Of a stretch of 64,000 nt of DNA, positions 13,276 through 50,922 are shown piece after piece (the first letter of the stretch is position 1; each line of letters starts with the position of its first letter). The translations under genes were made by a program, and so were the position numbers. The DNA comes from Sebaldella termitidis ATCC 33386 (GTDB lineage Bacteria; Fusobacteriota; Fusobacteriia; Fusobacteriales; Leptotrichiaceae), in NCBI RefSeq assembly GCF_000024405.1, contig NC_013517.1, forward strand, positions 1,488,001 through 1,552,000, in the 5' to 3' direction. Under the pieces are notes generated by a model. The model made no database searches and had not been told where the DNA came from. It saw only the letters and a program-made list of their open reading frames with translations.

Positions 13276-14727
13276 ATGTTTGATTTTATAAAAAAACTAT
13301 TTAGGAGAAAAGAAAATATGAATGAATTTAATAAAAGTGAAACCGAAGCACTTATAAATGCTTATCAAGTTTCGCCTAAATATATAAGCATGTTGACTGG
13401 AAAAAGATATTATGAGGGACAACATGATATATTGAAACGGAAAAGACAAGTAATTGGTGAGGATGGGAAACTGACACCTATTGAAAACTTGCCAAACAAT
13501 AAGCTTGTAGATAATCAATATGCTAAAATGGTTAACCAGAAAACAAATTATCTTTTGTCTAAAGTTCCAACACTGCAGAGTGAAAACACTGAGTATGTAA
13601 AGGCTCTGAATAATGTATTTAACAAACAATTTCTTAAAACAATGAAAAGGCTGGGTAAGGATTGCTACAATTATGGGATAGGATGGCTACATGTATATTA
13701 TAATGAAGCTGGTGAGTTCAAAATTAAGCGTATGGATCCACTTGAAATTATCCCAATTTGGAAAGATAACGATCATGAGGAACTGGACAGCATAATAAGA
13801 TTGTACGTCATTCAAACATATAAAAGAGGTACTTTTAAGGCTACTACTAAAGCGGAAATTTATACAAAAAATGGTATTCAGTATTTTATTTGGGACGGAG
13901 TAAAGCTTTATAAAGATATGGAAAAAGAACCCATAAGTTACATGACAATGGAAACAGACGAGGGGGAGAAAAAGCCTTACAACTGGGATAAAATACCTTT
14001 TATTTCTTTTAGACCGGATGAGCTGGAACAGCCTTTGATTATTAGACTTAAATCATTACAGGACGGGATAAATACAATTTTATCGAACTTTCAAAACAAT
14101 ATGGAGGAGGACAACAGAAATACCATTATTGTCATAACCAATTATGACGGCGAGAATTTGGGGCAATTCAGAAAGAATTTAAGCCAGTTCGGAGCGGTAA
14201 AGGTTAATGACAATGGTGGAGTTGAAACACTTACGATTGAGATAAATGCAGAGAATTACAAGGCTATATTAGATTTATTTAAAAAGGCTTTGATAGAAAA
14301 TGCTAGAGGGTTTGATAGTAAATCAGATGTGCTGGGCTCTAATCCTAACCAGATGAACATACAATCAATGTATTCTGATATTGATTTAGATGCAAACGAA
14401 ATGGAAACGGAATTTCAGGCAAGCTTTGAGGAATTATTATTTTTTGTAAAAAAACATTTTATAAATACTGATGTTGGGGACTTTGATAATGAAACGGTTG
14501 AAATTATATTCAACAGGGACATTCTTATAAATGAGTCTACGGTTATTGATGATATTGCAAAAAGTATGGGTATATTGTCACAAGAAACTCTAGTATCACA
14601 GCATCCTTATGTTATTGATACCGAAAAAGAACTGGAAAGAATTAAAAAGGAAAAAGAGGAAGATTTGGACATATATGGAGAGTTTGGTAAGGAAAACCCC
14701 GCCAGTGGTATAGATGTCAAAGAATAA
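13276..14727 (+). CDS. Portal protein, SPP1 gp6 type
   Basis: This 483-residue protein matches the SPP1-type portal family in length and order: an N-terminal helix, the KLVDNQYAKMVNQKTNYLLSK region, a central wing, PFISFRPDELEQP, and the SLQDGINTILSN segment, followed by an acidic tail. Twelve copies would form the ring through which DNA enters and leaves the head. It has an ATAGGAGAAAATA site and follows the terminase by nine bases. It overlaps the minor head gene by 14 bases, which suggests coupled translation. Confidence 0.9.
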   Translation: MFDFIKKLFRRKENMNEFNKSETEALINAYQVSPKYISMLTGKRYYEGQHDILKRKRQVIGEDGKLTPIENLPNNKLVDNQYAKMVNQKTNYLLSKVPTLQSENTEYVKALNNVFNKQFLKTMKRLGKDCYNYGIGWLHVYYNEAGEFKIKRMDPLEIIPIWKDNDHEELDSIIRLYVIQTYKRGTFKATTKAEIYTKNGIQYFIWDGVKLYKDMEKEPISYMTMETDEGEKKPYNWDKIPFISFRPDELEQPLIIRLKSLQDGINTILSNFQNNMEEDNRNTIIVITNYDGENLGQFRKNLSQFGAVKVNDNGGVETLTIEINAENYKAILDLFKKALIENARGFDSKSDVLGSNPNQMNIQSMYSDIDLDANEMETEFQASFEELLFFVKKHFINTDVGDFDNETVEIIFNRDILINESTVIDDIAKSMGILSQETLVSQHPYVIDTEKELERIKKEKEEDLDIYGEFGKENPASGIDVKE

Positions 14728-16639
14728 ATACTGGACAGAACGATTTAAACAAGAAGAAGCCAGAATGCACGCCTTAACTGAAATAGAAGTAAGAAAAGCA
14801 GCAAAAGAATATGAAAAATCATTCCGGGAAATTGAAAAAGATATCAATAACTGGTATTCTCGTATAGCAAAAAACAATGACATTTCCTATGCAGATGCTA
14901 AAAAACTGTTAAATAAAAAAGAATTACAAGAATTTAAGTGGACTGTAGACGAATACATTAAACGAGGTCGTGAAAATAACCTGACAGGTGAATGGATGAA
15001 ACAACTTGAGAACGCATCGGCAAAATATCATATTGAACGTCTGGAAGCTATGAAACTGCAGATATCAAATCAGGTAGAGCATTTATATAATGGTCGGAAA
15101 TATGACATGGATAATTTTTTAAGAAATACTTTTAAGGATTCATACTATCATTCAGCGTTCAATATTGCACAGGGTACAGGAGTTGGAAAGAAAATATATG
15201 CATTGAATTCCAACTTAGTGGACAAAGTCATAAATAAGCCGTGGATGGCGGACGGTAAAAACTTTAGTGACAGGTTATGGCAGGACAAAGAAAATCTTAT
15301 AAATACGCTGCATACTGAATTGACACAGTCATTTATCAGAGGAGATACGCAGGATAAAGTAATTAAACGGTTCATGGAAAAGTTTGATACTAAAAAACAT
15401 GTAGCAGCCAGACTGATTAGAACAGAGAGTGCTGCATATCAGTCGAAAGGACGATTACAGTGCTATGGTGATTTGGATGTTGAAAAATACGAGATAATAT
15501 CGACTTTAGATATAAAAACATCCCACATATGCCGTGATCTGGACGGAGCTATCTTTGATGCGAAAGATTATGAAATAGGTGTGACAGCTAACCCTTTTCA
15601 TCCATTCTGCAGGTCGACAACAGCACCCTATTTTGATGATGCTGAGGATGATGTAAGAGCTGCAAGGGATAGCAGAACTGGAAAAACCAATTATGTACCG
15701 GGCGACATGAAATATAATGACTGGTATAATAAATATGTTGTTGAGAAACCAAAGGAAAAACCGGAAACCGTTCCGGATGTAAAAGCAGATTTGACAATAG
15801 AAAAGAAACAGGATAATATTAAATTGGAAGATAATACACTTATAAAACAAATGAGTGATATTTACAAAAGTTGGGATGGAGAAAATAGAAGAACTTTAGC
15901 AACTGAGCTTTTACGAGCAAATGGGTTGGAAATAAAGCCGAGTATCAAGAAGTTAAAAAATGCATATGGAGAGTGTGCAGCCTACCTAATTGATGATAGG
16001 CACAGATTAGTACAATTCAATTTATTAAGTACGGATAATAGATCTATGGAGGATCAAGTAAAAACTATATTTCATGAACTTTTTCATGCAAATTATAACA
16101 ACCTACTGACTGACCGGAAAACAAAAGTACCCGGAGATGTGTGGTCTTTTATAGAGGAAACTTTTGCAGAAAGTTCTGCGCATTATTTATCTAAAGCAGC
16201 AGGAATTGAGAAAAATATGGCTTTCGCTTATCCAGATTATTTAGTCGCAGCTTTACCACGACTAAAAAAAATGGAAATGTTTAAAAATTGTTCTAGTGTG
16301 TCAGATTTTGGTAAAATTATTTCTGAATTCCGATTTGGTAAAAATAGAACTGCGCAATGGTCGAAATTTGATGGCATACTGTATAACATAAAAAATGATA
16401 ACTTTAATATAAAAAAATATGCCAAAAACTACACGGCTTATATAGCTGATAATAAAGAAAAACTCGTTGAGATATTTATTTCGTCCAATCCGACATCAAA
16501 ACATTATAAAAAATCAATTTTAGAAAGTATAACCGATACAAATGATAAATTACATAATGGGGAAACTGTAGAAATAAGTAAGTTTAAATTATATAAAAAT
16601 ATTTTGATACTTGCCATGGATGAGAAAGGAGTGATTTAA
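14714..16639 (+). CDS. Minor head protein (SPP1 gp7/Mu F type) fused to a zincin-like metallopeptidase domain
   Basis: The first ~300 of 641 residues form a phage head morphogenesis domain: long N-terminal helices, RTESAAYQSKGRLQ, CRDLDG near residue 272 and NPFHPFCRST near 294, as in SPP1 gp7 and Mu gpF. After a Pro/Glu/Lys-rich linker (about 335-375) comes a domain unrelated to head assembly with HELFH at 454-458 and EETFAES at 481-487. This HExxH plus downstream Glu pattern is typical of zincin metallopeptidases. Head proteins of this family often carry C-terminal enzyme or toxin domains that may be injected with DNA. The small gene at 16639 starts on its stop codon. Peptidase activity is inferred. 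Confidence 0.8.
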   Translation: MSKNKYWTERFKQEEARMHALTEIEVRKAAKEYEKSFREIEKDINNWYSRIAKNNDISYADAKKLLNKKELQEFKWTVDEYIKRGRENNLTGEWMKQLENASAKYHIERLEAMKLQISNQVEHLYNGRKYDMDNFLRNTFKDSYYHSAFNIAQGTGVGKKIYALNSNLVDKVINKPWMADGKNFSDRLWQDKENLINTLHTELTQSFIRGDTQDKVIKRFMEKFDTKKHVAARLIRTESAAYQSKGRLQCYGDLDVEKYEIISTLDIKTSHICRDLDGAIFDAKDYEIGVTANPFHPFCRSTTAPYFDDAEDDVRAARDSRTGKTNYVPGDMKYNDWYNKYVVEKPKEKPETVPDVKADLTIEKKQDNIKLEDNTLIKQMSDIYKSWDGENRRTLATELLRANGLEIKPSIKKLKNAYGECAAYLIDDRHRLVQFNLLSTDNRSMEDQVKTIFHELFHANYNNLLTDRKTKVPGDVWSFIEETFAESSAHYLSKAAGIEKNMAFAYPDYLVAALPRLKKMEMFKNCSSVSDFGKIISEFRFGKNRTAQWSKFDGILYNIKNDNFNIKKYAKNYTAYIADNKEKLVEIFISSNPTSKHYKKSILESITDTNDKLHNGETVEISKFKLYKNILILAMDEKGVI

Positions 16640-16845
16640 TGCTGTTAATATTTCCGGAACAACTCAATAAACCTGAAAATCTTGAAAGAGTGTATGAAAT
16701 TATAAATAGTAAAAATTTAGTAGATTGCGCACTTGTTGGGGAAAATGAAAAAAAGATTGATGAAATAATACAGGAGTTACAGGAACTGGGAGAAACAAAA
16801 ATAATTAATATGATCAATTCAGGTGAATTGATTTTAATAGGTTAG
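16639..16845 (+). CDS. Small acidic protein coupled to the head-zincin fusion
   Basis: This 68-residue protein begins in a TAATG overlap with the minor head-zincin gene and ends just before a terminator. It is acidic and helical (EKKIDEIIQELQELGETKIINMI). No family was recognised. Its exclusive coupling to a gene with a toxin-like C-terminal domain makes an inhibitor or immunity role possible; it could equally be an unrelated head accessory. Nothing in the sequence decides between these. Confidence 0.6.
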   Translation: MLLIFPEQLNKPENLERVYEIINSKNLVDCALVGENEKKIDEIIQELQELGETKIINMINSGELILIG

Positions 16846-16853
16846 TACCACAG

Positions 16854-16881
16854 GCACTTAGTGAAAACTAGGTGCTTTTTT
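16854..16881 (+). terminator. Intrinsic terminator after packaging genes
   Basis: GCACTTAGT-GAAA-ACTAGGTGC is a nine-base stem with one G-T pair, followed by six T. It separates the terminase-portal-head block from the scaffold and capsid genes, so a further promoter or read-through is needed downstream. Confidence 0.8.
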
Positions 16882-16982: not shown

Positions 16983-17585
16983 ATGGAAAAGGAAAAATTA
17001 ATTAAATTAGGTTTGACAGAAGAACAGGCGGACAAAGTGATTGCTGAACACAAAGCACAGCTTGAGGGTAATTATATTCCGAAAAGTAGATTTGATGATG
17101 TTAATAATGCAAAGAAAAAACTTGAAAAAGATATTGCAGAAAGAGATAAACAACTAAAAACGCTCAAAGAAGATACTAACACCAATGAAGAACTCAAGAC
17201 AATAATAGAAAAGCTTGAAGCTGATAATAAAGCAGCAAACGACGATTATAAAAAAGAAATTGCAGCTTTAAAACTCAATGCCGCAATAGAATCTACTTTA
17301 TTGACTCAAAAGGCTAAAAATATAAAAGCGGTAAAATCTTTGTTGGATATCAGTAAAATATCACTTGAAAATGAAAATTTATCAGGTTTAGAGGAACAGA
17401 TAAAAGTGTTAAAAGAAGCTGAGGACTCAAAATTTTTATTTGAGGTGGAAGCAAAAGCAGATCCAAAGACACCTGCAGGAGCAACACCGGGGGCAAGTAA
17501 TATTGATACAGGATCAGATACAAAAAATATGAGTTACGAGCAACTTGCGGAATACATGGAAGCTAACCCGGGTATAAAATTATAA
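16983..17585 (+). CDS. Scaffold protein, phage GP20 family
   Basis: This 200-residue protein opens with LIKLGLTEEQADKVI and NYIPKSRFDDVNNAKK, followed by a long coiled coil and a flexible Gly/Thr/Pro-rich tail, the pattern of phage GP20 scaffolding proteins. It shapes the prohead and leaves before packaging. The ATG has AAAAGGAGAA upstream. It lies directly before the capsid gene. The 137-bp gap to the previous gene also holds CGTCG/CGACG and CGTGT/ACACG inverted repeats of unknown role. Confidence 0.88.
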   Translation: MEKEKLIKLGLTEEQADKVIAEHKAQLEGNYIPKSRFDDVNNAKKKLEKDIAERDKQLKTLKEDTNTNEELKTIIEKLEADNKAANDDYKKEIAALKLNAAIESTLLTQKAKNIKAVKSLLDISKISLENENLSGLEEQIKVLKEAEDSKFLFEVEAKADPKTPAGATPGASNIDTGSDTKNMSYEQLAEYMEANPGIKL

Positions 17586-17602: not shown

Positions 17603-18676
17603 ATGGCAAAATTTGACAGTAAAACATTTAACCCAGAAGCGTTCGGGGTTTATGTTGAAAGAGTACCAAATACAAAAAGAAATGAACTGATTAAATCAGG
17701 AGTATTGAAAGGAAATGAAGCAATAAGAAATACTTTTTCAAACCAATCAGGAACGGCATATGCAACATTACCAATGTACGGGCTATTGGATGGGGATCCG
17801 TTAAACTATGACGGAGAAACAGATATTACATCAACAAGTACAACAACATTTCAGAGAAGTGTGGTTGTGGTAGGGAGAGCCAAAGCATGGGTTGAGGGTG
17901 ATTTTGCTTATGATATAACTGGCGGCGCAGATTTTATGTCGAATGTAGGGAATCAAGTGGCGAGCTATTGGGAAAATATATATCAAAGGGAATTACTGCA
18001 TATTTTAAATGGTATATTCTCAATGACTGGAAATTCTGGTAATACTGGCTTTGTAACAAATCATACTTATGACATATCAGGAGATGCTGACGAAGCTAAA
18101 CAAATAGTAGGGGCTACTACTCTAAACAGTGCTGCTGCAAAGGCGACAGGGGATAATAAAAGCAATTTCAAGGTTGTAATAATGCATTCAACTATTGCGA
18201 CTAATCTGGAAAACTTAAAAGTATTGAAATATTTTACACAAACAGATGCTGAGGGTATAAATAGAGAAATAGGGCTTGCAACATGGAATGGAAGAACAGT
18301 ATTTATAGATGACTCTATGCCTGTAGAAGTGGTTCCGGCATCAGGAACTGATCCAGAGTATACAAAATATACTACTTATATTCTGGGTACAGGTTCAATT
18401 GATTATGAGGATATAGGGGCAAAAGTACCTTATGAAATGGCAAGAGATCCTAAAACTAATGGAGGACTTGATACTTTGTACACAAGAAAAAGATTTGTGT
18501 ATAGCCCATACGGGATAAGTTATACTAAAAAGAATCAAGTAACTTTATCGCCTACATCAGATGAATTGGAAGATGGTGCAAACTGGGAACTTGTAAATAA
18601 TGGAGTTACTGGAGCAGGTAAAAAGTATATTGATCATAAAGCCATAGCGATTGCAAGAATAATCTCAAGAGGTTAA
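17603..18676 (+). CDS. Major capsid protein
   Basis: The 357-residue product follows the scaffold gene and has the properties of a major coat protein of Clostridium-type phages: an AIRNTFSNQSGTAYATLPMYG segment, a VVVVGRAKAWVEGDFAYDITGGADFMSNVGNQVASYW central region, and RTVFIDDSMPVEV. A strong AGGAGGAG site fits high expression. It should form the icosahedral shell with an HK97-like fold, an inference from family and position. Confidence 0.85.
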   Translation: MAKFDSKTFNPEAFGVYVERVPNTKRNELIKSGVLKGNEAIRNTFSNQSGTAYATLPMYGLLDGDPLNYDGETDITSTSTTTFQRSVVVVGRAKAWVEGDFAYDITGGADFMSNVGNQVASYWENIYQRELLHILNGIFSMTGNSGNTGFVTNHTYDISGDADEAKQIVGATTLNSAAAKATGDNKSNFKVVIMHSTIATNLENLKVLKYFTQTDAEGINREIGLATWNGRTVFIDDSMPVEVVPASGTDPEYTKYTTYILGTGSIDYEDIGAKVPYEMARDPKTNGGLDTLYTRKRFVYSPYGISYTKKNQVTLSPTSDELEDGANWELVNNGVTGAGKKYIDHKAIAIARIISRG

Positions 18677-42729: not shown

Positions 42730-45700
42730 GTGAAAAAAAATAAAAAACTGTTAGTATTATTTTTAGCTCTTAACTCAATTTTGACATCTTATGCCGATAC
42801 AGCAGGCGGAACAGGTCTGTCCGGCAGTAAATATGAAAGAATGTATAATAATATAGTAAAAAATATAGAAAAAGGAAATTCTACACAGAAAAATTATCAG
42901 GTTATAGAAAATATTCTAAAAAAGAAGAATAAAGAATTAAAGGATTTATATCTGCAGGGGGATTATGTAGTAAAGCCGGAATATTTGGAATGGCAGGTAT
43001 TTTTTACAGGATTTTATGCAGAAAATGAAAAAGGCGATAATACAATGGAAAATGCTGATTATTATACTTCAGCAAGAACACAGAGCGGTAAATTAACAGT
43101 AAATTTAAGAATATATAATGAGCTTCTGGCGGCAGGACTGACTTCAAACCAGGTAGAGGCACTTTTTAACGGTGACAGGAATGTGATAAATTCTCTGACT
43201 GATGAACAGAAGAATATTTTTTATAGTCCGAGTAATCTTTCTGGTACTTTTAAATCATTTCATCAGAAAGAAGATCCTAATAATATAAAACTGGGGGCTT
43301 CGATACCAATAAAAGAAGTATTGGATTTTTCACTTGATCCTCAGATAAAAATAGTGGAAAAAGCAATAAACCCGATAATAGTAAATCTTCCAAATACAAA
43401 AGTAGAAAAAATAATGATAACAGATTTCAGAGGAATAACAGCACCGACACCGCAGGCACCTACGATTAATATTACTGTAAATCCTTCTGCTACCATTAAT
43501 TCACCTGTTATAAACTTTAATTTTAGTGCAGGACATAATGCGGGGGCTCCGATGAATCTGAGCGGAGGTGTAGTAAACCACGATACATATAATAATAAAA
43601 TAGTTTCAATGAATTATAACCGTGTTTTTACAATAACAGACACTTTTCATATTGTTAACAGTCCTGGCGGAAAAATGTTTTTTGCTCAGGGGACTGATAT
43701 AGAATTTACAAATTCAAATCCCAGTCCTGCAAGTTCATACGGGAGATTTTTTGCAGAAAACAGAAACAATGCTACATTACTTGCAAATTATGGGAAGATA
43801 ACAATATCAGCGGCTTCATCAGACGCATTTATATTTGGTGATACTGTGGATTCGGTTCTATCCGGAGGTGTACCGTTCAGTACTTCTGTATATAATGGGG
43901 GAACAATGATACTGAATGCTGCTTCTCATAACGGACAGGCGAGTATTCCGGGTGGTGTTGCTATGGCATATCTTTCCAGGGGTGATGATGCCAATAGCGG
44001 TGCGAAGCAGAGATACTTGGTAAATGGAATAAATGGTGTCATGAATATAAACGGTTGGGGAAATTACGGAATATTAATGAATCAGGTAGATAGTGAGCCT
44101 ACTTCACATAAAACAGAAGTAACAGAAGCGAATATAAATTTACTTATAAATAAAGGTAAAGTAAATATAAATGTAAATGGAAGACCAGGAGGATATACAG
44201 AGGGGAATGTAGGTATAGCTGCTTTTGCAGATAACACACTGGGTACTGGGAATGATAATTCGTTTGTTTTAAATGATAATGAAGGAACAATAACTTCAAA
44301 TAGTGGAAATAATATTCTTTTAAGACATAAAGGAACAGGTGAGGTTTGGAATAAAGGAGTAATGCTGATTAATTCGGGAAATACAATAGGGATTGACAGG
44401 GAAAACTGGCTTTATGCGGCATCTTCTAATCCTGGAAGTCTGGCATTGGGAGTTAATGATGGTGCAATAATTGTAACTGAAAATGCAGAAAATGTAAAAG
44501 CAGTATCTGGTACAAGCGATACAAAAAAACATAACAATACACAAAATACGGATAAAAAAATAATCATAAAAAATGGAGACGGTGTAACGGGCGGAGCTGA
44601 TTACGATAAAGATAACGCGGCTTCTTCTTCTATTACTAAGAATATAAGTAAAAGCAGTGCTGGAAAAGGCGGAAGCGTAAACGGAGATATAACTGGAATG
44701 ATGTCTACTGCACCGGGGATGTCAGCAGGAACAACAACTTTGGATAATGATCCTAATATTGATAGTATAATTGAAAATAAAACAACAACTTTCAGTATGA
44801 CAATAGCAGGGAAAACTTATAATTATTCCACACAGGATGGTGTCATATTTTTAGGAGGAAAAAATTCAGCCGGACTAGCTTCTGATGTAAGAAATATAGG
44901 TTCTTATAATCCTCAATTAGACTTGGTTACAGTGAGAAATGACATAGACGGAAAAATATTCATTTATTCCACAGGAAACAGTGCAAGTCAGTATACTATA
45001 GGGATAAATGGTCTATATTCAACAGTAGAAAATAAAGGCGGAATATTTCTGGGACTTACGGCACAAAGCGGTCCAATAGCAGCACTGGCTTCAGCTGTAG
45101 CAACTGAAGGCGCAGTTGCGACACCCGGGAATTATAACTATATAGGTATTTACGGAAAAGGAAGTAATATATCCAATACCGGATTTATAACTGATAAAGC
45201 TTCTGATGCTTTAAACTATTCTCAAAAGGCAATAGGAATCTATGCCGAAAATTCTAAAGTGAACGGGACACTAGTAGGGAAAGTGGAAAACAGCGGGAAT
45301 ATAACTCTTGGAATCGGCGGAAGTGCAGTTATAACTAAGGGATTAAGTGCAGCTGAAAAGATAGGACTGAAAAGTACAGGGGAAATCAGTGTGTCTGGAA
45401 ATGCTGTATATCAAGGAATCGGATTTACACTTGAAAATACTGATGCCGAAATTTCAAATAAAATAAACCTTTCCGGAGAAAATACGATCGGAATCTATGG
45501 AAAGAACAGCACTATTAAGGCAGGCTCACTGGAAATCGCCGGGAATAATATCGGGAAAAGTATTGGAATCGTGGGAGATACTGCAGTACTGGAAGTGAAA
45601 AACGGAGTAAAAATAAATCTTCTTAACGGCGAAAATAATATAGGTATTTACGGAAAAAATATTACCTATACAGACAGCATTACAGGAACACAGCCGGATT

Positions 45701-48700
45701 ATCTGACGGTTAATCTTGGTAACAGTGGTATAGGAGCTTATTTAACAGACCTTGTATCCAATACAACATTAAAAATAAATACTATTAATACAGGAAATAC
45801 AACTACTGCACAGCTTGCAGGAGGAATTTATGCCACGTCTTCGGCAGGAAGCATAAATATAACCGGCGGATCAATAAAAGTAGGAACTTCTCTTCAGAAC
45901 GGAGGCGGATTTGGAATATACGTTTCTGGAGGAGCTGGAACCAACGGTACCATAAATCTGGGAACAAATGCAGTAACTGTAAATCAGAGATCAGGATTAG
46001 GAATTTATGCAAATAATATAACAAATATAACAACAGGAGATATAACTGCAGGAAATACAGGTGTATTCCAAAATAATACTTCGGCAGCAGGGGCGCTAAA
46101 AACTGGAAAGATAATCCTTACAGGCAGTGAGGACAATATGATAGGTGTTTATACTTCCGGAAATACTACAAATGCAGAAATTAACGGACTTGAAATGACA
46201 GGCCTTGAAAAACTGACAGGTATATATGTAGGAAAAGGCGGATTTAAAAATACAGGAAATATAAGCATAAATGCAGGAAAATTATCCTACGGTATCTATA
46301 TAAAAGGGGATGCAGGCAATAAAACCGTAGATTTTGGAAGCGGGACAAGCAATATAGTATTAGGAAACGAAAGTCTGGGATTATATCTTGATAACGTAAA
46401 TGTAACTGGAAGTATGCCGACAGGCATAACTGTAGGGGATTCAAATACCTCAGGCAAGCAGAGTGTGGGAATTTATGCCAAGGATACAGCTTTTAGCAAT
46501 CCTGTGGGTACCAATGTAATTTCAGGAAAAGAATCTGTAGGTGTGTACTTTGATACAAATACCGGAAACATAGAGTATAACGGAAGTGTGTCTCTTGGAG
46601 AAAATTCACTCGGGATTTATAAAAACAGCGGTACGCTGAAAAGAGATCCATCGGCTTCATTAGTATTTGCAGGTACTAACAATATGCAGTCCACAGGTTT
46701 TTATCTTGATAATGCAGTACTGGATTTTACATCAGGTGCTCTAAATGCAAATACTCTTTCAATGAATTCGGGAATAGCCTTTTTATTAAAAGGAAATACT
46801 TCTGATGTAAGGGTAAACGGTACAACAATAACTCCGACACAGCTGGACAGTCTCGGTCTTGCACCGAAGGTAGAACGGATTGTTTATTCGGAAAAAAATG
46901 AAACAGTAGCAGGAGATATAACACTGGATCCGGCAGTAAGATATTACGGTCACAGAGCTAAGGACGGAAGGCTGGAAATAAACGGAAATATATATACCAG
47001 CAGTAATATAACAGCTACATACGGGGTAGCGGTACAAAACAGATATACAGTACTGCCTGTGACGGAAGAAGTACTTTTGAACAGCGGATATGTAGTAGAT
47101 ATGTCAAATTCTTCCGGAAGTGTAGGTATACAGTCACTGGCAGGAGCAAGAGCAGTAAATAAGGGGAAAGTAATAGTCGGTAACAGCAGCAGTGCAAGTG
47201 CAGGAATAGGTATACTTGCCGAAAGCAGTACAATAAACCTTACAAGCGTGGTAAATGATTCTGGAGCAGTAATAGAGATGCCTTATGCAGGAATTGGTAT
47301 ATATCTGGATTCACTTGAGCTTGGCGGAAGTGTAACAAATGCAGGGACAATAAGCTCTACCCAGGCAAATGCTTTGGGAATTTATGCGAAAATGTCCTCG
47401 ACGGGAGTTTTGGGAGCACCGATTACTGCAATTACAAATACGGGAAGTATTAATCTTTCTGATAACGGATTTGGAATATTTACGGATAATTCTACAATTA
47501 CAAATTCGGGAAATATAACAGTGGATAATCCTGGAACAAACAGTATTATTGCTATTTATGGAGGAAGAAACTCTATTATTAACAATACCGGAGGAAATAT
47601 TTCAGTGGGAGAAGGCGGAATAGCCTTTTACGGAAATAATACAGCTATGACAATTTCAGGCGGAAATTTTTCTACTGAAGGCGGTACACTGATTTATGCA
47701 GAAAATAATACAAATATAACTTATACAGCCAATGGAACAACTCTGGGGAATAAAATAGGAATTTACCTTGATCAGAGTAAAATAGATCTTGGAGGAAAAA
47801 ATTTCTCAGTTATGGATTCAGGTTCGGCTATATATCTTCTTGGGGCAAATGCAGAGGCTAAATCATTGGGAACAATGACTCTGGGGAATAATTCCGAAGG
47901 TGCTTACGTAAAAAACAGCATGATGAATCTTCTCGGCGGTACTATGAATATAACAGGCTCTAATTCTACAGGGATAATAGGAATAAACTCCAATATTGAA
48001 AATACAACGGCAATAAATGCCAATATATTGGCAGGAAGCTTTGAAAATAAAGGATTACTTGTAAAAGTAGATGACGGCGGAACATATACAATAAGAAACA
48101 AGGCAGCCATAAATATAACAGGTGCTAATTCACTGGGAATATACGGAAGTACTCTTGACAGCAGCGGAAATATTCTCGGAGCACTTAATATAATAAATGA
48201 AAATAATATAAATATGGGTTCTGCTTCTGATATAAATAATATGCTGATGGGAATATACGGAACACAGAATGTAAATATTTCCAATACTACAGGAAATATA
48301 ACAGGGGGCAGTTATACTGCCGGAATATATTCAGCAGGAGGAACAGTAACGCATGATTCCAGTATTAGTCTCGGTGATGCATCAGTAGGGATTTATATGT
48401 CAGGAGGAACAGGGACAGTAAGTCTCGGAGCCGGTGTATCAGTAGGGAACGGAATAAGAAAGATAGTTTCCGGAAATCAGGTAATAGAGAGCGGAGTGGC
48501 ACTATATGCCAATAATGGTGCAGTTATTACCAATTTCTCCCCTAATATAAATGTGGGAAGCGACAGTATAATAGGTTATTCAAAAGGTGCAGGCTCAAAA
48601 ATAATAAATCACGGCAATGCAGCACTTGGAACAGAAGCTATAGGATTTTACACAAGCGGTGCCGAGCTTGAAAATTACGGGACACTATCTTCAAGTGGTG

Positions 48701-50922
48701 ACGGAGTAATTTATTTCTACGGTAAAGACGGGAAAATAACAAACAGCGGAAATATAAACGGAGCTGCACATAATTACGGAGTGGGAATATATGGTAAAAA
48801 TTCTGAAATTATAAATACAGCAGATATACTATTGGGAGATACATACTATAATCCTGCCAAAGCTGATGATCCTTCTGATTCAAGCCACAGATATGCAGTA
48901 GGAATCTACGGGGATCAGTCAAAAATATATAATAACGGAGAAATACATATAGGACAGCGTGGTATAGGAATTTATTCATATGGTCAGACCGGTGATCTTA
49001 TAAATGATATAAACGGGAAAATAATTTCTTCCGGGGATAATACAGTAGGCTTACTTGTGGAAGGAAGCGGAAGCTATAATGTCATTAATAACGGGCAGAT
49101 AATCTTATCGGGGAAAAATTCGGTAGGAGCTTCTATAAACAGAAATACTACACTGATAAACAACGGATTAATAGAAGTAAGCGGAGAAAACAGTGTGGGT
49201 ATAATGGCGGAAGCAAGCTCGAAGGTAGTTAACAATGCTGTAATAAGTGCATTGGGAACAAGTGTGGCGGGAGTGGTGCTGAGAAGCGGTTCAGTGCTGG
49301 AAAACCACGGGACTATAACCGGTCTTGTGCTTGCCGATGATGTGGACAGTGCAGTAGCAAGTGCTTCCAGTGCATCAGTGGCGGCAACAAGCCTTTACGG
49401 ATATACTGAAAAGCTTCCGGGAACTGTGCTGCCGTCTTATGCAAAACCGACAATAGTAAACTCAGGTGTAATAAATGTAGATAATAATTTTCTTCTTGAC
49501 GGGATTAATCTGATAATAAAGCCTGATCTTCAAAATCCATCGACTACTGTAATAAGCTCAGGAAATATAGACTTTATATATGATGCAGTGAAATTCACAG
49601 GAGGAAAAATAGATAAGGGTATGCTGGTAGAGGTTACGCCTGACTTTGCAGAAGGAACAACAGCAACGGCAATACAGCTTCTGAAAACATTTACGTCTAC
49701 TTCGGGACTGGATATAAATGATTTTGATGTAATAAGCCAGTCTATTCTATGGGCAATAACACCGGCATATAATAAGGATGACGGAACATCAATCGATCTT
49801 ATAGCTACGAAAAAGTTATTTCATACATTATCTGAAGGCTTATGGTATGAAGATTTTGCCGCTAATATGGACAATAATTATTCAGGTTCTGCGGGAGATG
49901 CACTAAAAATATACAATAAAGCAAACTGGCTGACTTCCGACAAGGACTTGAGACATGTAATGGCAAGTCTTGCAGGAAATGTATATGCCAATATAAATCA
50001 GAGAGAAATGGATATAGAGGCAGTATTTGATAATTCCGTGAATTTCCTTCAGGATTCGGAAAATAATACAAAAGAAAATGTAAAAATAAATGTAATAGCA
50101 GGAAAAGGTGAATTAAAAGAGGATACAGACGGTGTAGTGCCGTATGATTACAGAACAACAGGAGTAATAGCACTTAGAGAAGTAGAAAGAACATACAGAC
50201 ATACATTTGGCTACTCGCTGGGATATGCAAATACCAATTTTGATATGAAGGATAATAATGACAGCGAGGAAACAGTAAATACAATACAGCTTGGATTTCA
50301 TAATAAATACACAACGGACAGCTGGAAAATAAAAAATAATCTTACAGGAAGAGTAAGCTTCCATGATATGGACAGAAATATCATGTGGCCGACAAAAGAC
50401 GGAAGATCAGAGATGAGCAGCAGATATGAAGTATACAGTATTTCAAGCGATAATATTCTCGGGAAAGAATTGGCACTTGGTAAAAATGCAAGTATAACAC
50501 CATATGGAGCGATAAAAGCAGTATATATGACAAGACCTGATTTTACGGAAGACGGACTGGAAAGTCTTCAGGTGGACGGAAATGATGCATGGAGCGTAAA
50601 ACCTAGAGCTGGAGTAGAGCTTAAGGCAGAAGTTCCTTTGGGAGCAAATACAGCATGGAAATTAAAGGGAACTATTGATCTGGCATATGAATATGAACTG
50701 GCAGATATAAATGAGAGAGAATATGCAAGATTAACAGCAATAGAAAGTGATTATCACGAGCTTTCAAAACCAGAGGATGAAAAAGGAGCATTTAGAAGCA
50801 AGGCTGCTATAGGTGTGGAAGTAGAAAATAGATACGGAATATTCCTTACAGGGGAATATGTAACAGGAGAAAATGACAAAGAGGATTACAGAGCGGGAGT
50901 TTCTCTGAAAGCAGTATTCTAA
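42730..50922 (+). CDS. Giant type Va autotransporter
   Basis: The 2,730-residue protein starts at a GTG behind TAAGGAGGAAAT. It has a signal peptide (residues 1-22, cut near SYA), a helical N-terminal domain (about 35-100; ENILKKKNKELKDLY and KPEYLEWQVFF) shared with the second autotransporter, a passenger of about 2,250 residues made of GIYGKNS-type units (N-x-G-x-I followed by GIY), expected to form a beta helix, and a C-terminal beta-barrel translocator from about 2,370 ending in KAVF with the terminal Phe. It would display the passenger on the surface for adhesion or shielding. No protease motif was noted. Very few Cys. Confidence 0.9.
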   Translation: MKKNKKLLVLFLALNSILTSYADTAGGTGLSGSKYERMYNNIVKNIEKGNSTQKNYQVIENILKKKNKELKDLYLQGDYVVKPEYLEWQVFFTGFYAENEKGDNTMENADYYTSARTQSGKLTVNLRIYNELLAAGLTSNQVEALFNGDRNVINSLTDEQKNIFYSPSNLSGTFKSFHQKEDPNNIKLGASIPIKEVLDFSLDPQIKIVEKAINPIIVNLPNTKVEKIMITDFRGITAPTPQAPTINITVNPSATINSPVINFNFSAGHNAGAPMNLSGGVVNHDTYNNKIVSMNYNRVFTITDTFHIVNSPGGKMFFAQGTDIEFTNSNPSPASSYGRFFAENRNNATLLANYGKITISAASSDAFIFGDTVDSVLSGGVPFSTSVYNGGTMILNAASHNGQASIPGGVAMAYLSRGDDANSGAKQRYLVNGINGVMNINGWGNYGILMNQVDSEPTSHKTEVTEANINLLINKGKVNINVNGRPGGYTEGNVGIAAFADNTLGTGNDNSFVLNDNEGTITSNSGNNILLRHKGTGEVWNKGVMLINSGNTIGIDRENWLYAASSNPGSLALGVNDGAIIVTENAENVKAVSGTSDTKKHNNTQNTDKKIIIKNGDGVTGGADYDKDNAASSSITKNISKSSAGKGGSVNGDITGMMSTAPGMSAGTTTLDNDPNIDSIIENKTTTFSMTIAGKTYNYSTQDGVIFLGGKNSAGLASDVRNIGSYNPQLDLVTVRNDIDGKIFIYSTGNSASQYTIGINGLYSTVENKGGIFLGLTAQSGPIAALASAVATEGAVATPGNYNYIGIYGKGSNISNTGFITDKASDALNYSQKAIGIYAENSKVNGTLVGKVENSGNITLGIGGSAVITKGLSAAEKIGLKSTGEISVSGNAVYQGIGFTLENTDAEISNKINLSGENTIGIYGKNSTIKAGSLEIAGNNIGKSIGIVGDTAVLEVKNGVKINLLNGENNIGIYGKNITYTDSITGTQPDYLTVNLGNSGIGAYLTDLVSNTTLKINTINTGNTTTAQLAGGIYATSSAGSINITGGSIKVGTSLQNGGGFGIYVSGGAGTNGTINLGTNAVTVNQRSGLGIYANNITNITTGDITAGNTGVFQNNTSAAGALKTGKIILTGSEDNMIGVYTSGNTTNAEINGLEMTGLEKLTGIYVGKGGFKNTGNISINAGKLSYGIYIKGDAGNKTVDFGSGTSNIVLGNESLGLYLDNVNVTGSMPTGITVGDSNTSGKQSVGIYAKDTAFSNPVGTNVISGKESVGVYFDTNTGNIEYNGSVSLGENSLGIYKNSGTLKRDPSASLVFAGTNNMQSTGFYLDNAVLDFTSGALNANTLSMNSGIAFLLKGNTSDVRVNGTTITPTQLDSLGLAPKVERIVYSEKNETVAGDITLDPAVRYYGHRAKDGRLEINGNIYTSSNITATYGVAVQNRYTVLPVTEEVLLNSGYVVDMSNSSGSVGIQSLAGARAVNKGKVIVGNSSSASAGIGILAESSTINLTSVVNDSGAVIEMPYAGIGIYLDSLELGGSVTNAGTISSTQANALGIYAKMSSTGVLGAPITAITNTGSINLSDNGFGIFTDNSTITNSGNITVDNPGTNSIIAIYGGRNSIINNTGGNISVGEGGIAFYGNNTAMTISGGNFSTEGGTLIYAENNTNITYTANGTTLGNKIGIYLDQSKIDLGGKNFSVMDSGSAIYLLGANAEAKSLGTMTLGNNSEGAYVKNSMMNLLGGTMNITGSNSTGIIGINSNIENTTAINANILAGSFENKGLLVKVDDGGTYTIRNKAAINITGANSLGIYGSTLDSSGNILGALNIINENNINMGSASDINNMLMGIYGTQNVNISNTTGNITGGSYTAGIYSAGGTVTHDSSISLGDASVGIYMSGGTGTVSLGAGVSVGNGIRKIVSGNQVIESGVALYANNGAVITNFSPNINVGSDSIIGYSKGAGSKIINHGNAALGTEAIGFYTSGAELENYGTLSSSGDGVIYFYGKDGKITNSGNINGAAHNYGVGIYGKNSEIINTADILLGDTYYNPAKADDPSDSSHRYAVGIYGDQSKIYNNGEIHIGQRGIGIYSYGQTGDLINDINGKIISSGDNTVGLLVEGSGSYNVINNGQIILSGKNSVGASINRNTTLINNGLIEVSGENSVGIMAEASSKVVNNAVISALGTSVAGVVLRSGSVLENHGTITGLVLADDVDSAVASASSASVAATSLYGYTEKLPGTVLPSYAKPTIVNSGVINVDNNFLLDGINLIIKPDLQNPSTTVISSGNIDFIYDAVKFTGGKIDKGMLVEVTPDFAEGTTATAIQLLKTFTSTSGLDINDFDVISQSILWAITPAYNKDDGTSIDLIATKKLFHTLSEGLWYEDFAANMDNNYSGSAGDALKIYNKANWLTSDKDLRHVMASLAGNVYANINQREMDIEAVFDNSVNFLQDSENNTKENVKINVIAGKGELKEDTDGVVPYDYRTTGVIALREVERTYRHTFGYSLGYANTNFDMKDNNDSEETVNTIQLGFHNKYTTDSWKIKNNLTGRVSFHDMDRNIMWPTKDGRSEMSSRYEVYSISSDNILGKELALGKNASITPYGAIKAVYMTRPDFTEDGLESLQVDGNDAWSVKPRAGVELKAEVPLGANTAWKLKGTIDLAYEYELADINEREYARLTAIESDYHELSKPEDEKGAFRSKAAIGVEVENRYGIFLTGEYVTGENDKEDYRAGVSLKAVF

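What the first reader, a model, noticed from the sequence alone, without database searches (positions are those of the whole stretch)
14714..16845. Head protein fused to a zincin-like peptidase, with a coupled small gene
The Mu F/SPP1 gp7-type domain is followed by a linker and a domain with HELFH (454-458) and a downstream Glu cluster (481-486), the layout of zinc metallopeptidases. Proteins of this family can enter the host with the DNA, so the phage may inject a protease. The 68-residue acidic protein encoded in a TAATG overlap right after it, and before a terminator, could protect the producing cell. Enzyme domains on this family are known (for example ADP-ribosyltransferases), but I do not recall this zincin plus small-partner pair.
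Basis: partly seen in the sequence, partly recalled or inferred. Interest (0 to 1): 0.72.

Follow-up and report, generated by a model that had tools for sequence, protein, structure and literature searches.

The report
Phage head protease with guard gene
A phage head protein ends in a predicted zinc protease and is followed by a small gene of one kind wherever we could check, a pairing that looks like a virus-delivered toxin with its own antidote; the antidote-like gene also turns up alone in other bacterial genomes, but nothing has been tested in the laboratory.

Summary
The 641-aa MuF head protein (14714-16639) ends in a ~265-aa zincin-like domain, and a 68-aa gene starts in its stop codon, before a terminator. 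Searches that did not use the small gene gave 58 loci (some redundant); in all 55 with a complete zincin domain the same small-protein family follows directly (34 groups at 85% identity). HExxH and the distal Glu are kept in 34 of 34. Carriers differ (PF04233, PF06152, portal fusion) and partner similarity follows the zincin more than the carrier. Eight related phage loci and four MuF paralogue loci lack both. Six partner genes stand alone in clostridial genomes, one behind a decayed zincin stub; no complete family zincin lacked its partner. That asymmetry fits toxin and immunity. Published mass spectrometry found the TP-84 relative in phage particles. Best reading: a virion-borne protease of the MuF polymorphic-toxin kind with a cognate immunity protein. 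The kind is published (Jamet 2017); this zincin family, its partner and the stand-alone copies I found in no paper, but supplements could not be read. Activity, injection and protection are untested.

The parts
14714..16639 (+). MuF / SPP1 gp7-type minor head protein with C-terminal zincin-like domain (641 aa)
   Evidence: PF04233 E 5e-14; TIGR01641 E 5e-24; phrog_115 minor head protein E 1e-115 over residues 1-628
15305..15622 (+). MuF domain, residues 198-303
15833..16636 (+). zincin-like domain, residues 374-641
   Evidence: AlphaFold pLDDT 95.3, pTM 0.93; hhalign to ArdC-type peptidases 95%, E 3.9e-8 for that one comparison; conserved in 34 groups
16073..16087 (+). HELFH motif, residues 454-458 (HExxH)
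   Evidence: 34 of 34 groups for H454, E455, H458
16169..16171 (+). E486, predicted distal zinc-ligand Glu
   Evidence: 34 of 34 groups; sits in the helix after the HExxH helix
16639..16845 (+). partner gene, 68 aa, acidic, predicted immunity protein, TAATG overlap
16852..16877 (+). terminator-like hairpin followed by T-run
   Evidence: 11 stem pairs; 4 terminator-like sites found in 2.6 kb, 1.1 expected from shuffles
13276..14727 (+). portal protein gene upstream, overlapping the MuF gene
   Evidence: phrog_64 portal E 2e-108
16983..17585 (+). head scaffolding protein gene downstream
   Evidence: phrog_194 E 8e-48
17603..18676 (+). major head protein gene downstream
   Evidence: phrog_247 E 3e-90

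Best explanation
It is a virion-borne peptidase toxin with a cognate immunity gene, of the MuF polymorphic-toxin kind. The MuF part (with the portal) places a few copies in the phage head; the C-terminal zincin enters the next cell with the DNA and cleaves an unknown host protein. The small acidic protein, made from the same late transcript through an overlapping start, binds and neutralises the peptidase in the producing cell. Stand-alone copies of the small gene protect other bacteria or prophages against such phages. SHOWN by sequence: the pairing, the exchange of zincin domains between carriers, the active-site conservation, stand-alone partners. SHOWN in print for one relative (TP-84): the zincin-bearing protein is in purified particles. 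INFERRED: zinc binding, proteolysis, entry into the cell, toxicity, co-expression, neutralisation by binding, and any role of the stand-alone copies.
For: Partner directly after 55 of 55 complete zincin domains among 58 loci, some redundant (2 run off the contig, 1 is broken inside the domain), starting -31 to +3 bases from the stop; these zincins were found without using the partner. Zincins 55% identical (L070, L080) lie on carriers in different BLAST clusters, and carriers 69% identical (L012, L080) bear zincins 32% identical. Across 34 groups partner similarity follows zincin similarity with carrier held fixed (partial rank correlation 0.58, 0 of 999 permutations reach it), much less the carrier with zincin held fixed (0.16, 57 of 999). 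Related carriers without the zincin lack the partner: 8 phage loci and 4 MuF loci of the same genome; two of the five such phage carriers tested against Pfam end in the toxin domain Ntox50. Partner without complete zincin: 6 loci; their genomes have no zincin match by the 32-row profile except G137, which has the pair elsewhere. Complete family zincin without partner: none seen. L143 keeps an apparently intact partner after a 36-residue remnant of a zincin C-terminus. TP-84 TP84_08 was detected in purified particles by MS with at least two peptides; TP84_09 (partner) is not among the proteins detected (PMC5889276 passages). Characterised MuF toxins Bxa and Apk2 are neutralised by products of adjacent genes (PMC11699363, PMC12226406 passages).
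Against: No activity, toxicity or protection data. The example pairs do not by themselves show that the partner moves with the zincin: partner similarity is 0.30 for L070/L080 (like zincins) and 0.38 for L012/L080 (like carriers). The folded fusion of an L060 zincin with its partner (pTM 0.81) gives no interface score and has a one-residue linker, so it neither supports nor refutes binding. TP-84 is described as lytic, perhaps a lytic variant of a temperate phage (PMC5889276), whereas Jamet et al. found MuF toxins only in temperate phages; protection of a lysogen cannot then be the whole story. The partner lies in the late head operon, so its expression in a quiescent lysogen is doubtful. Absence of TP84_09 from the particle MS could be due to its small size. 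L030's partner is not recovered by profile.
Confidence: 0.68

Rival explanations
1. Counter-defence enzyme: the injected peptidase cleaves a host defence protein or a repressor early in infection (it resembles ArdC, IrrE and CapP peptidases) rather than harming a competitor; the partner keeps it in check during assembly, and stand-alone partner genes are host or prophage blocks against it.
For: Profile match to ArdC-type peptidases; the top structural neighbours are IrrE/PprI and ArdC, with CapP lower in the list; Jamet et al. suggest that MuF toxins of low toxicity such as proteases may give resistance to cellular defences (PMC5576092).
Against: Structural Z values are below 8, so the neighbours may only reflect a common arrangement. 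No defence target is indicated; no co-occurring defence gene was examined.
Confidence: 0.2
2. Assembly enzyme and inhibitor: the zincin processes head proteins or itself during head maturation, and the partner is a chaperone or inhibitor that delays it; no injection.
For: Location in the head module between portal and scaffold; overlapping start; phrog_595, one of the families matched, is labelled head maturation protease.
Against: Related head proteins do without the domain or carry other domains such as Ntox50; TP-84 has a separate putative prohead protease; stand-alone partners occur away from head genes in the stretches read.
Confidence: 0.1
3. Dead or non-peptidase zincin: a structural C-terminal extension whose motif is kept for metal binding or folding, with the small protein as a structural partner.
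For: No activity known; PDB Foldseek search not significant; below curated Pfam cut-offs.
Against: All four predicted catalytic or ligand residues kept in 34 of 34 groups, although 31 aligned relatives are only 26-35% identical to the window's domain.
Confidence: 0.05

Closest known systems
MuF polymorphic toxins (Jamet et al. 2017, PMC5576092; sections 7 and 13 read, other passages seen)
   Same: MuF1 (PF04233) or MuF2 (PF06152) N-terminus next to the portal gene, variable C-terminal toxin domain, small ORF after the gene; 20% of their 191 putative toxins carry a metallopeptidase and 89.4% are followed by an ORF under 150 aa
   Different: Their metallopeptidase type is in supplementary tables I could not read; in the parts I saw, this zincin family, the partner family and stand-alone partners are not described; this family also occurs in TP-84, reported as lytic
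Apk2/IapK/Aph1 and Bxa MuF toxin-immunity systems (PMC12226406, PMC11699363; passages seen)
   Same: MuF N-terminus, enzymatic C-terminus, adjacent genes whose products are shown to neutralise it, some by binding
   Different: Alarmone synthetase and ADP-ribosyltransferase instead of peptidase; part of the immunity is enzymatic; experimentally tested
MPTase of polyvalent proteins and ArdC (PMC5512222 passages seen; PF18818)
   Same: Zincin-like domain with HExxH and Glu on the next helix, in phage-delivered or conjugation-delivered proteins; profile match 95%
   Different: Below the PF18818 cut-off (15.6 vs 27.5 bits); an extra helical half (about residues 500-641) conserved in this family and a coupled small gene; an ArdC-N domain was not looked for by itself
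Tox-MPTase1-5 of polymorphic toxins (PMC3482391 passages seen)
   Same: Zincin-like toxin domains with HExxH in polymorphic toxins
   Different: The table rows I saw list T2SS, T6SS, T7SS, TcdB/TcaC or PVC carriers, not MuF, and no immunity protein for them; not compared by sequence here

Membership tests
MuF polymorphic toxins | MuF-superfamily N-terminus encoded next to the portal gene | tested here: met
MuF polymorphic toxins | Conserved N-terminus with exchangeable C-terminal domains | tested here: met
   related carriers end in zincin, Ntox50 or unassigned domains
MuF polymorphic toxins | Small gene linked to the C-terminal domain rather than to the carrier | tested here: met
MuF polymorphic toxins | C-terminal domain toxic and neutralised by the small protein | not testable with these tools
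   needs expression experiments
MuF polymorphic toxins | Carried by temperate phages or prophages | tested here: inconclusive
   The window lies inside a 4.49 Mb bacterial assembly with phage head genes, but integrase and ends were not examined; the TP-84 relative is reported as lytic
MuF polymorphic toxins | Toxin domain also found on non-phage polymorphic toxin carriers | tested here: inconclusive
   No full-length relative outside head proteins in the collections searched, but these are limited and the weak partial hits were not inspected
Zincin metallopeptidases | HExxH motif | tested here: met
   34 of 34 groups
Zincin metallopeptidases | Third ligand Glu on the following helix | tested here: met
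   E486 34 of 34, helix 101-122 of the model
Zincin metallopeptidases | Zincin fold | tested here: inconclusive
   Profile match to ArdC peptidases 95%; structural neighbours mostly zinc peptidases but best Z 6.8 and no significant Foldseek PDB match
Zincin metallopeptidases | Zinc-dependent proteolysis | not testable with these tools
   needs biochemistry
PF18818 MPTase-PolyVal | Score above curated cut-off | tested here: not met
   15.6 bits whole protein, 17.1 bits domain alone, cut-off 27.5
PF10263 SprT-like | Score above curated cut-off | tested here: not met
   20 bits whole protein, cut-off 25.6
Tox-MPTase1-5 | Sequence membership | not tested
   known only from passages of PMC3482391
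phrog_34655 (small partner) | Profile match | tested here: inconclusive
   26 of 31 partner proteins match at E 0.1 or better, best E 5e-39, but the window protein itself only at E 0.08

The most novel reading that the evidence does not exclude
Phages of this type inject a peptidase, and bacteria and rival prophages have taken up the phage's own antidote as a stand-alone gene that disarms the injected enzyme: a small, single-gene form of resistance to infection or superinfection, recognisable because the antidote outlives or travels without the toxin.
Probability: 0.28. Interest if true: 0.75.

Novelty: new variant of a known kind. Interest (0 to 1): 0.52.

Why it matters
MuF toxins are widespread in prophages, but why a phage would carry a toxin into its own host is open. 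This family gives a compact test case: a peptidase with a clear active site to mutate, a tightly linked antidote candidate, a relative in a cultured phage (TP-84) whose particles are reported to contain it, and stand-alone antidote candidates in bacterial genomes. If those block infection, they would be a simple class of resistance gene that current catalogues would miss: no Pfam, NCBIfam or PADLOC model matched the 31 partner proteins beyond scattered weak hits, best E 0.0019, 0.0015 and 0.008.

Tried and rejected
Ordinary artefact or chance ORF pair: rejected by leave-one-out profiles and held-out groups. Small gene as a general companion of MuF heads: rejected by 8 phage loci and 4 paralogue loci. 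Weak clostridial zincin hits as further members: of the ten weak places (E 3.5e-7 to 9.6e-4), seven were fetched; they are ArdC-like proteins by their sequence (my reading) and none has the partner (best E 0.22). The other three and the twenty weak places were not inspected.

Led nowhere: exact-pattern scan with the window domain in genome contigs (none); PDB sequence searches with domain, zincin profile and partner profile (nothing credible); Foldseek PDB (nothing at E 0.001); plasmids with the L060 domain (none); window partner and L113 partner in named phages (none); paper searches for metalloprotease plus immunity in prophage capsids (none). Scans for orphan partners in viral contigs gave one further pair (L112), one pair already held (L153, contig of L020), one stand-alone copy 98% like that of L142 (L154, a 27.7 kb record without zincin match; it may be a fragment), and once nothing. 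The fusion fold was not usable for an interface because no inter-domain confidence is reported.

Rows dropped before counts: L011 is the window itself and is left out of the 34 groups; L019 and L088 run off the contig; L083 is broken inside the domain; L112 and L154 came late and are in no count. L053 and L076 run off the contig at the 5' end, their zincin domain being complete. L062 has a partner cut short by a frame change; its near-twin L064 (same group) has it complete and stands for the group. Eight loci (L025, L070, L071, L077, L078, L081, L085, L086) have an in-frame upstream start that lengthens the partner; the offsets -20 to -31 come from that. The zincin search of the 391 genomes used a 4-row profile; the genomes of that set with stand-alone partners were searched again with the 32-row one.
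Full report
WHAT IS THERE. The window lies at 1,488,001-1,552,000 of contig C1 of a 4.49 Mb assembly. The viral contig that holds the same gene is IMGVR_UViG_646311952_000004; from memory that IMG number is Sebaldella termitidis (Fusobacteriota), which no call confirms. The gene order is terminase large subunit, portal, MuF protein, 68-aa gene, terminator-like hairpin, scaffold, major head protein. The MuF protein is 641 aa. Its first 340 residues match many phages (946 of 50,697 records at E 1e-5; in the 60 rows listed the match ends at residue 337-400), whereas the last 268 residues match only 4 records, three different phages, at E 0.01. So the C-terminal part is a separate module.

THE DOMAIN. 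HELFH (454-458: H454, E455, H458) and E486 are kept in 34 of 34 groups of relatives, as are G419, R443, K450, T451, G497, Y506, P515, L517, K518, G533, Y573 and G639. AlphaFold with a 32-row alignment gives mean pLDDT 95.3 and pTM 0.93: helices, three strands, the HExxH helix (model 72-86), the Glu helix (101-122), then a further helical half. Foldseek finds no significant PDB match. Among predicted viral proteins two minor capsid proteins match at E 0.001 or better. The second aligner ranks IrrE, ArdC, MATCAP and PprI first, at Z 6.8 or less, which its notes call middling. A profile-profile comparison with six ArdC-like proteins aligns HExxH with HExxH and E486 with their conserved Glu (95%, E 3.9e-8 for this one comparison). 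Pfam gives only sub-threshold hits to SprT-like and MPTase-PolyVal. I take it as a zincin family distantly related to those; activity is not shown.

THE PARTNER. I collected relatives of the zincin without using the partner: named phages, viral contigs, genome contigs, 98 genomes of the window's phylum and 391 genomes of the class of G098, the genome of L022, titled Clostridium thermobutyricum. Of 58 loci scored, two run off the contig (L019, L088), one is broken inside the domain (L083), and 55 have a complete zincin domain; 55 of 55 have the partner at -31 to +3 bases from the stop. Some loci are near-copies, and L011 is the window itself. The other 54 fall into 34 groups at 85% identity. 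For 12 clusters, one member each, a profile trained without the cluster ranked the partner first among six-frame ORFs in 11; it failed for L030, whose small gene is the most divergent. The 22 groups not used in training score E 1.9e-6 to 4e-21. The partner has 59-82 residues and a negative net charge in 32 of 34, has no credible Pfam, NCBIfam or PADLOC match, and 26 of 31 members match phrog_34655, function unknown, at E 0.1 or better (the window protein itself only at E 0.08).

CASSETTE EXCHANGE. Of 12 carriers tested against Pfam (of 34), six are plain PF04233 (window, L012, L014, L022, L055, L061), four PF06152 (L008, L018, L023, L070; L008 with a sub-threshold PF04233 hit too), one is Portal_Mu fused to PF04233 (L087, of the L030 group), and one (L063) has no match. 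By BLAST the 34 carriers form three unconnected sets of 28, 4 and 2. Zincins 55% identical sit on carriers in different sets (L070, L080), and carriers 69% identical bear zincins only 32% identical (L012, L080). Over 561 pairs, partner similarity correlates with zincin similarity (rank correlation 0.61; 0.58 with carrier held fixed; 0 of 999 permutations) more than with carrier similarity (0.30; 0.16 with zincin held fixed; 57 of 999). These pairs are not independent; the permutation shuffles whole loci but does not model phylogeny. Single pairs can go the other way: partner similarity is 0.30 for L070/L080 and 0.38 for L012/L080. Eight phage loci with related carriers but no zincin (phiC2, FNU_1P, phiPaco, Jimmer2, MT835552, IPP31, CD1801, phi OH2) have no partner, best E 0.044; nor do the four other MuF loci of the same genome, L002-L005, held as 3.1-3.3 kb stretches. 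Five of the eight phage carriers were tested against Pfam; phiC2 and phi OH2 carry Ntox50 there instead.

PARTNER WITHOUT ZINCIN. In the 98 genomes of the window's phylum the partner profile has three strong matches (E 2.5e-16 or better; the next is 1.1e-4, inside a 766-aa frame), in the same three genomes that have the zincin; these three were in its training set. In the 391 genomes of the class of G098 there are six strong matches (E 1.3e-10 or better, two weaker ones at 5e-4 and 9e-4 not counted): two next to a zincin (G098, G137) and four not (G283, G154, G363, and a second copy in G137). In 397 genomes of the family of G099 (the genome of L023, titled Lachnospiraceae) there are three (one weaker at 8e-4 not counted): one paired (G099), two not (G824, G866). 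So 6 of 9 are unpaired, and G098 and G099 were chosen as centres because they have the pair. Searched with the 32-row zincin profile, G154, G283 and G363 and G824 and G866 show no match, and G137 only its paired one. Around the six unpaired copies (8 to 8.5 kb each) tblastn with 34 zincin domains finds nothing better than E 0.011 except in G866, where a 36-residue remnant of a zincin C-terminus (E 1e-4; profile E 0.002) stands directly before an apparently intact partner. Neighbours differ: genes that look chromosomal to me in G283, G363 and the G137 copy, and a tape-measure gene (PF20155) upstream in G154 and G824. In named phages the TP-84 partner finds only the records that have the zincin. 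So no complete family zincin was seen without a partner, while partners do occur without the zincin. That is what one expects of an immunity gene and less of an assembly factor.

HOW IT MOST LIKELY WORKS. [quoted passage not shown] In TP-84 the zincin-bearing protein TP84_08 was detected by mass spectrometry in purified particles with at least two peptides; TP84_09, its small neighbour, is not among the detected proteins (PMC5889276, passages). I infer that the domain travels in the head, enters with DNA and cleaves a cytoplasmic protein; the partner holds it inactive in the producing cell. Stand-alone partners would protect other cells. Rival readings are a counter-defence role and an assembly role. 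The fold of an L060 zincin-partner chain (pTM 0.81; partner mainly in three helices) does not decide binding.

WHAT IS KNOWN. Jamet et al. defined MuF toxins: 191 putative toxins, 20% with a metallopeptidase, 89.4% followed by a small ORF against 25.5% of short MuF genes, found only in temperate phages and prophages, an association they give as not significant in the phage set alone (p = 0.055) (PMC5576092; sections 7 and 13 and passages). Zhang et al. and Iyer et al. described zincins in polymorphic toxins and polyvalent proteins (PMC3482391, PMC5512222; passages). Bxa and Apk2 have tested immunity proteins (PMC11699363, PMC12226406; passages). The listings of my paper searches showed no paper on this zincin-partner pair; supplements could not be read, so Jamet's metallopeptidases may include it. 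I therefore call it a new variant of a known kind.

Noticed in passing
L113 3897-4079; L114 4124-4327; L115 3669-3881; L116 4081-4305; L142 4469-4666; L143 3930-4112 (minus strand): Stand-alone copies of the partner gene without a neighbouring zincin in clostridial genomes; in L114 and L142 they lie downstream of a tape-measure gene, in L143 behind a decayed zincin C-terminus.
   Followed up: partly
L145 2501-4113 (phiC2); L152 2501-4149 (phi OH2): Related MuF proteins carry an Ntox50 domain followed by a different small gene that looks alike in the two phages, possibly another toxin-immunity pair.
   Followed up: no
L147 2495-4069 (phiPaco) and L146 2480-4045 (FNU_1P): MuF proteins of Fusobacterium phages end in other domains without a convincing Pfam assignment; the phiPaco one looks to me like an acetyltransferase (my reading).
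   Followed up: no
L010 2223-4474 (TP-84): A phage reported as lytic carries the toxin-like pair, against the published observation that MuF toxins are confined to temperate phages.
   Followed up: no
L030 3291-6536 and L087 426-3671: Portal, MuF and zincin fused in one 997-aa protein, followed by an 82-aa divergent partner in the same frame.
   Followed up: partly
window 42730-50922: A 2730-aa ORF on the plus strand, beyond the phage head and tail genes; not examined.
   Followed up: no
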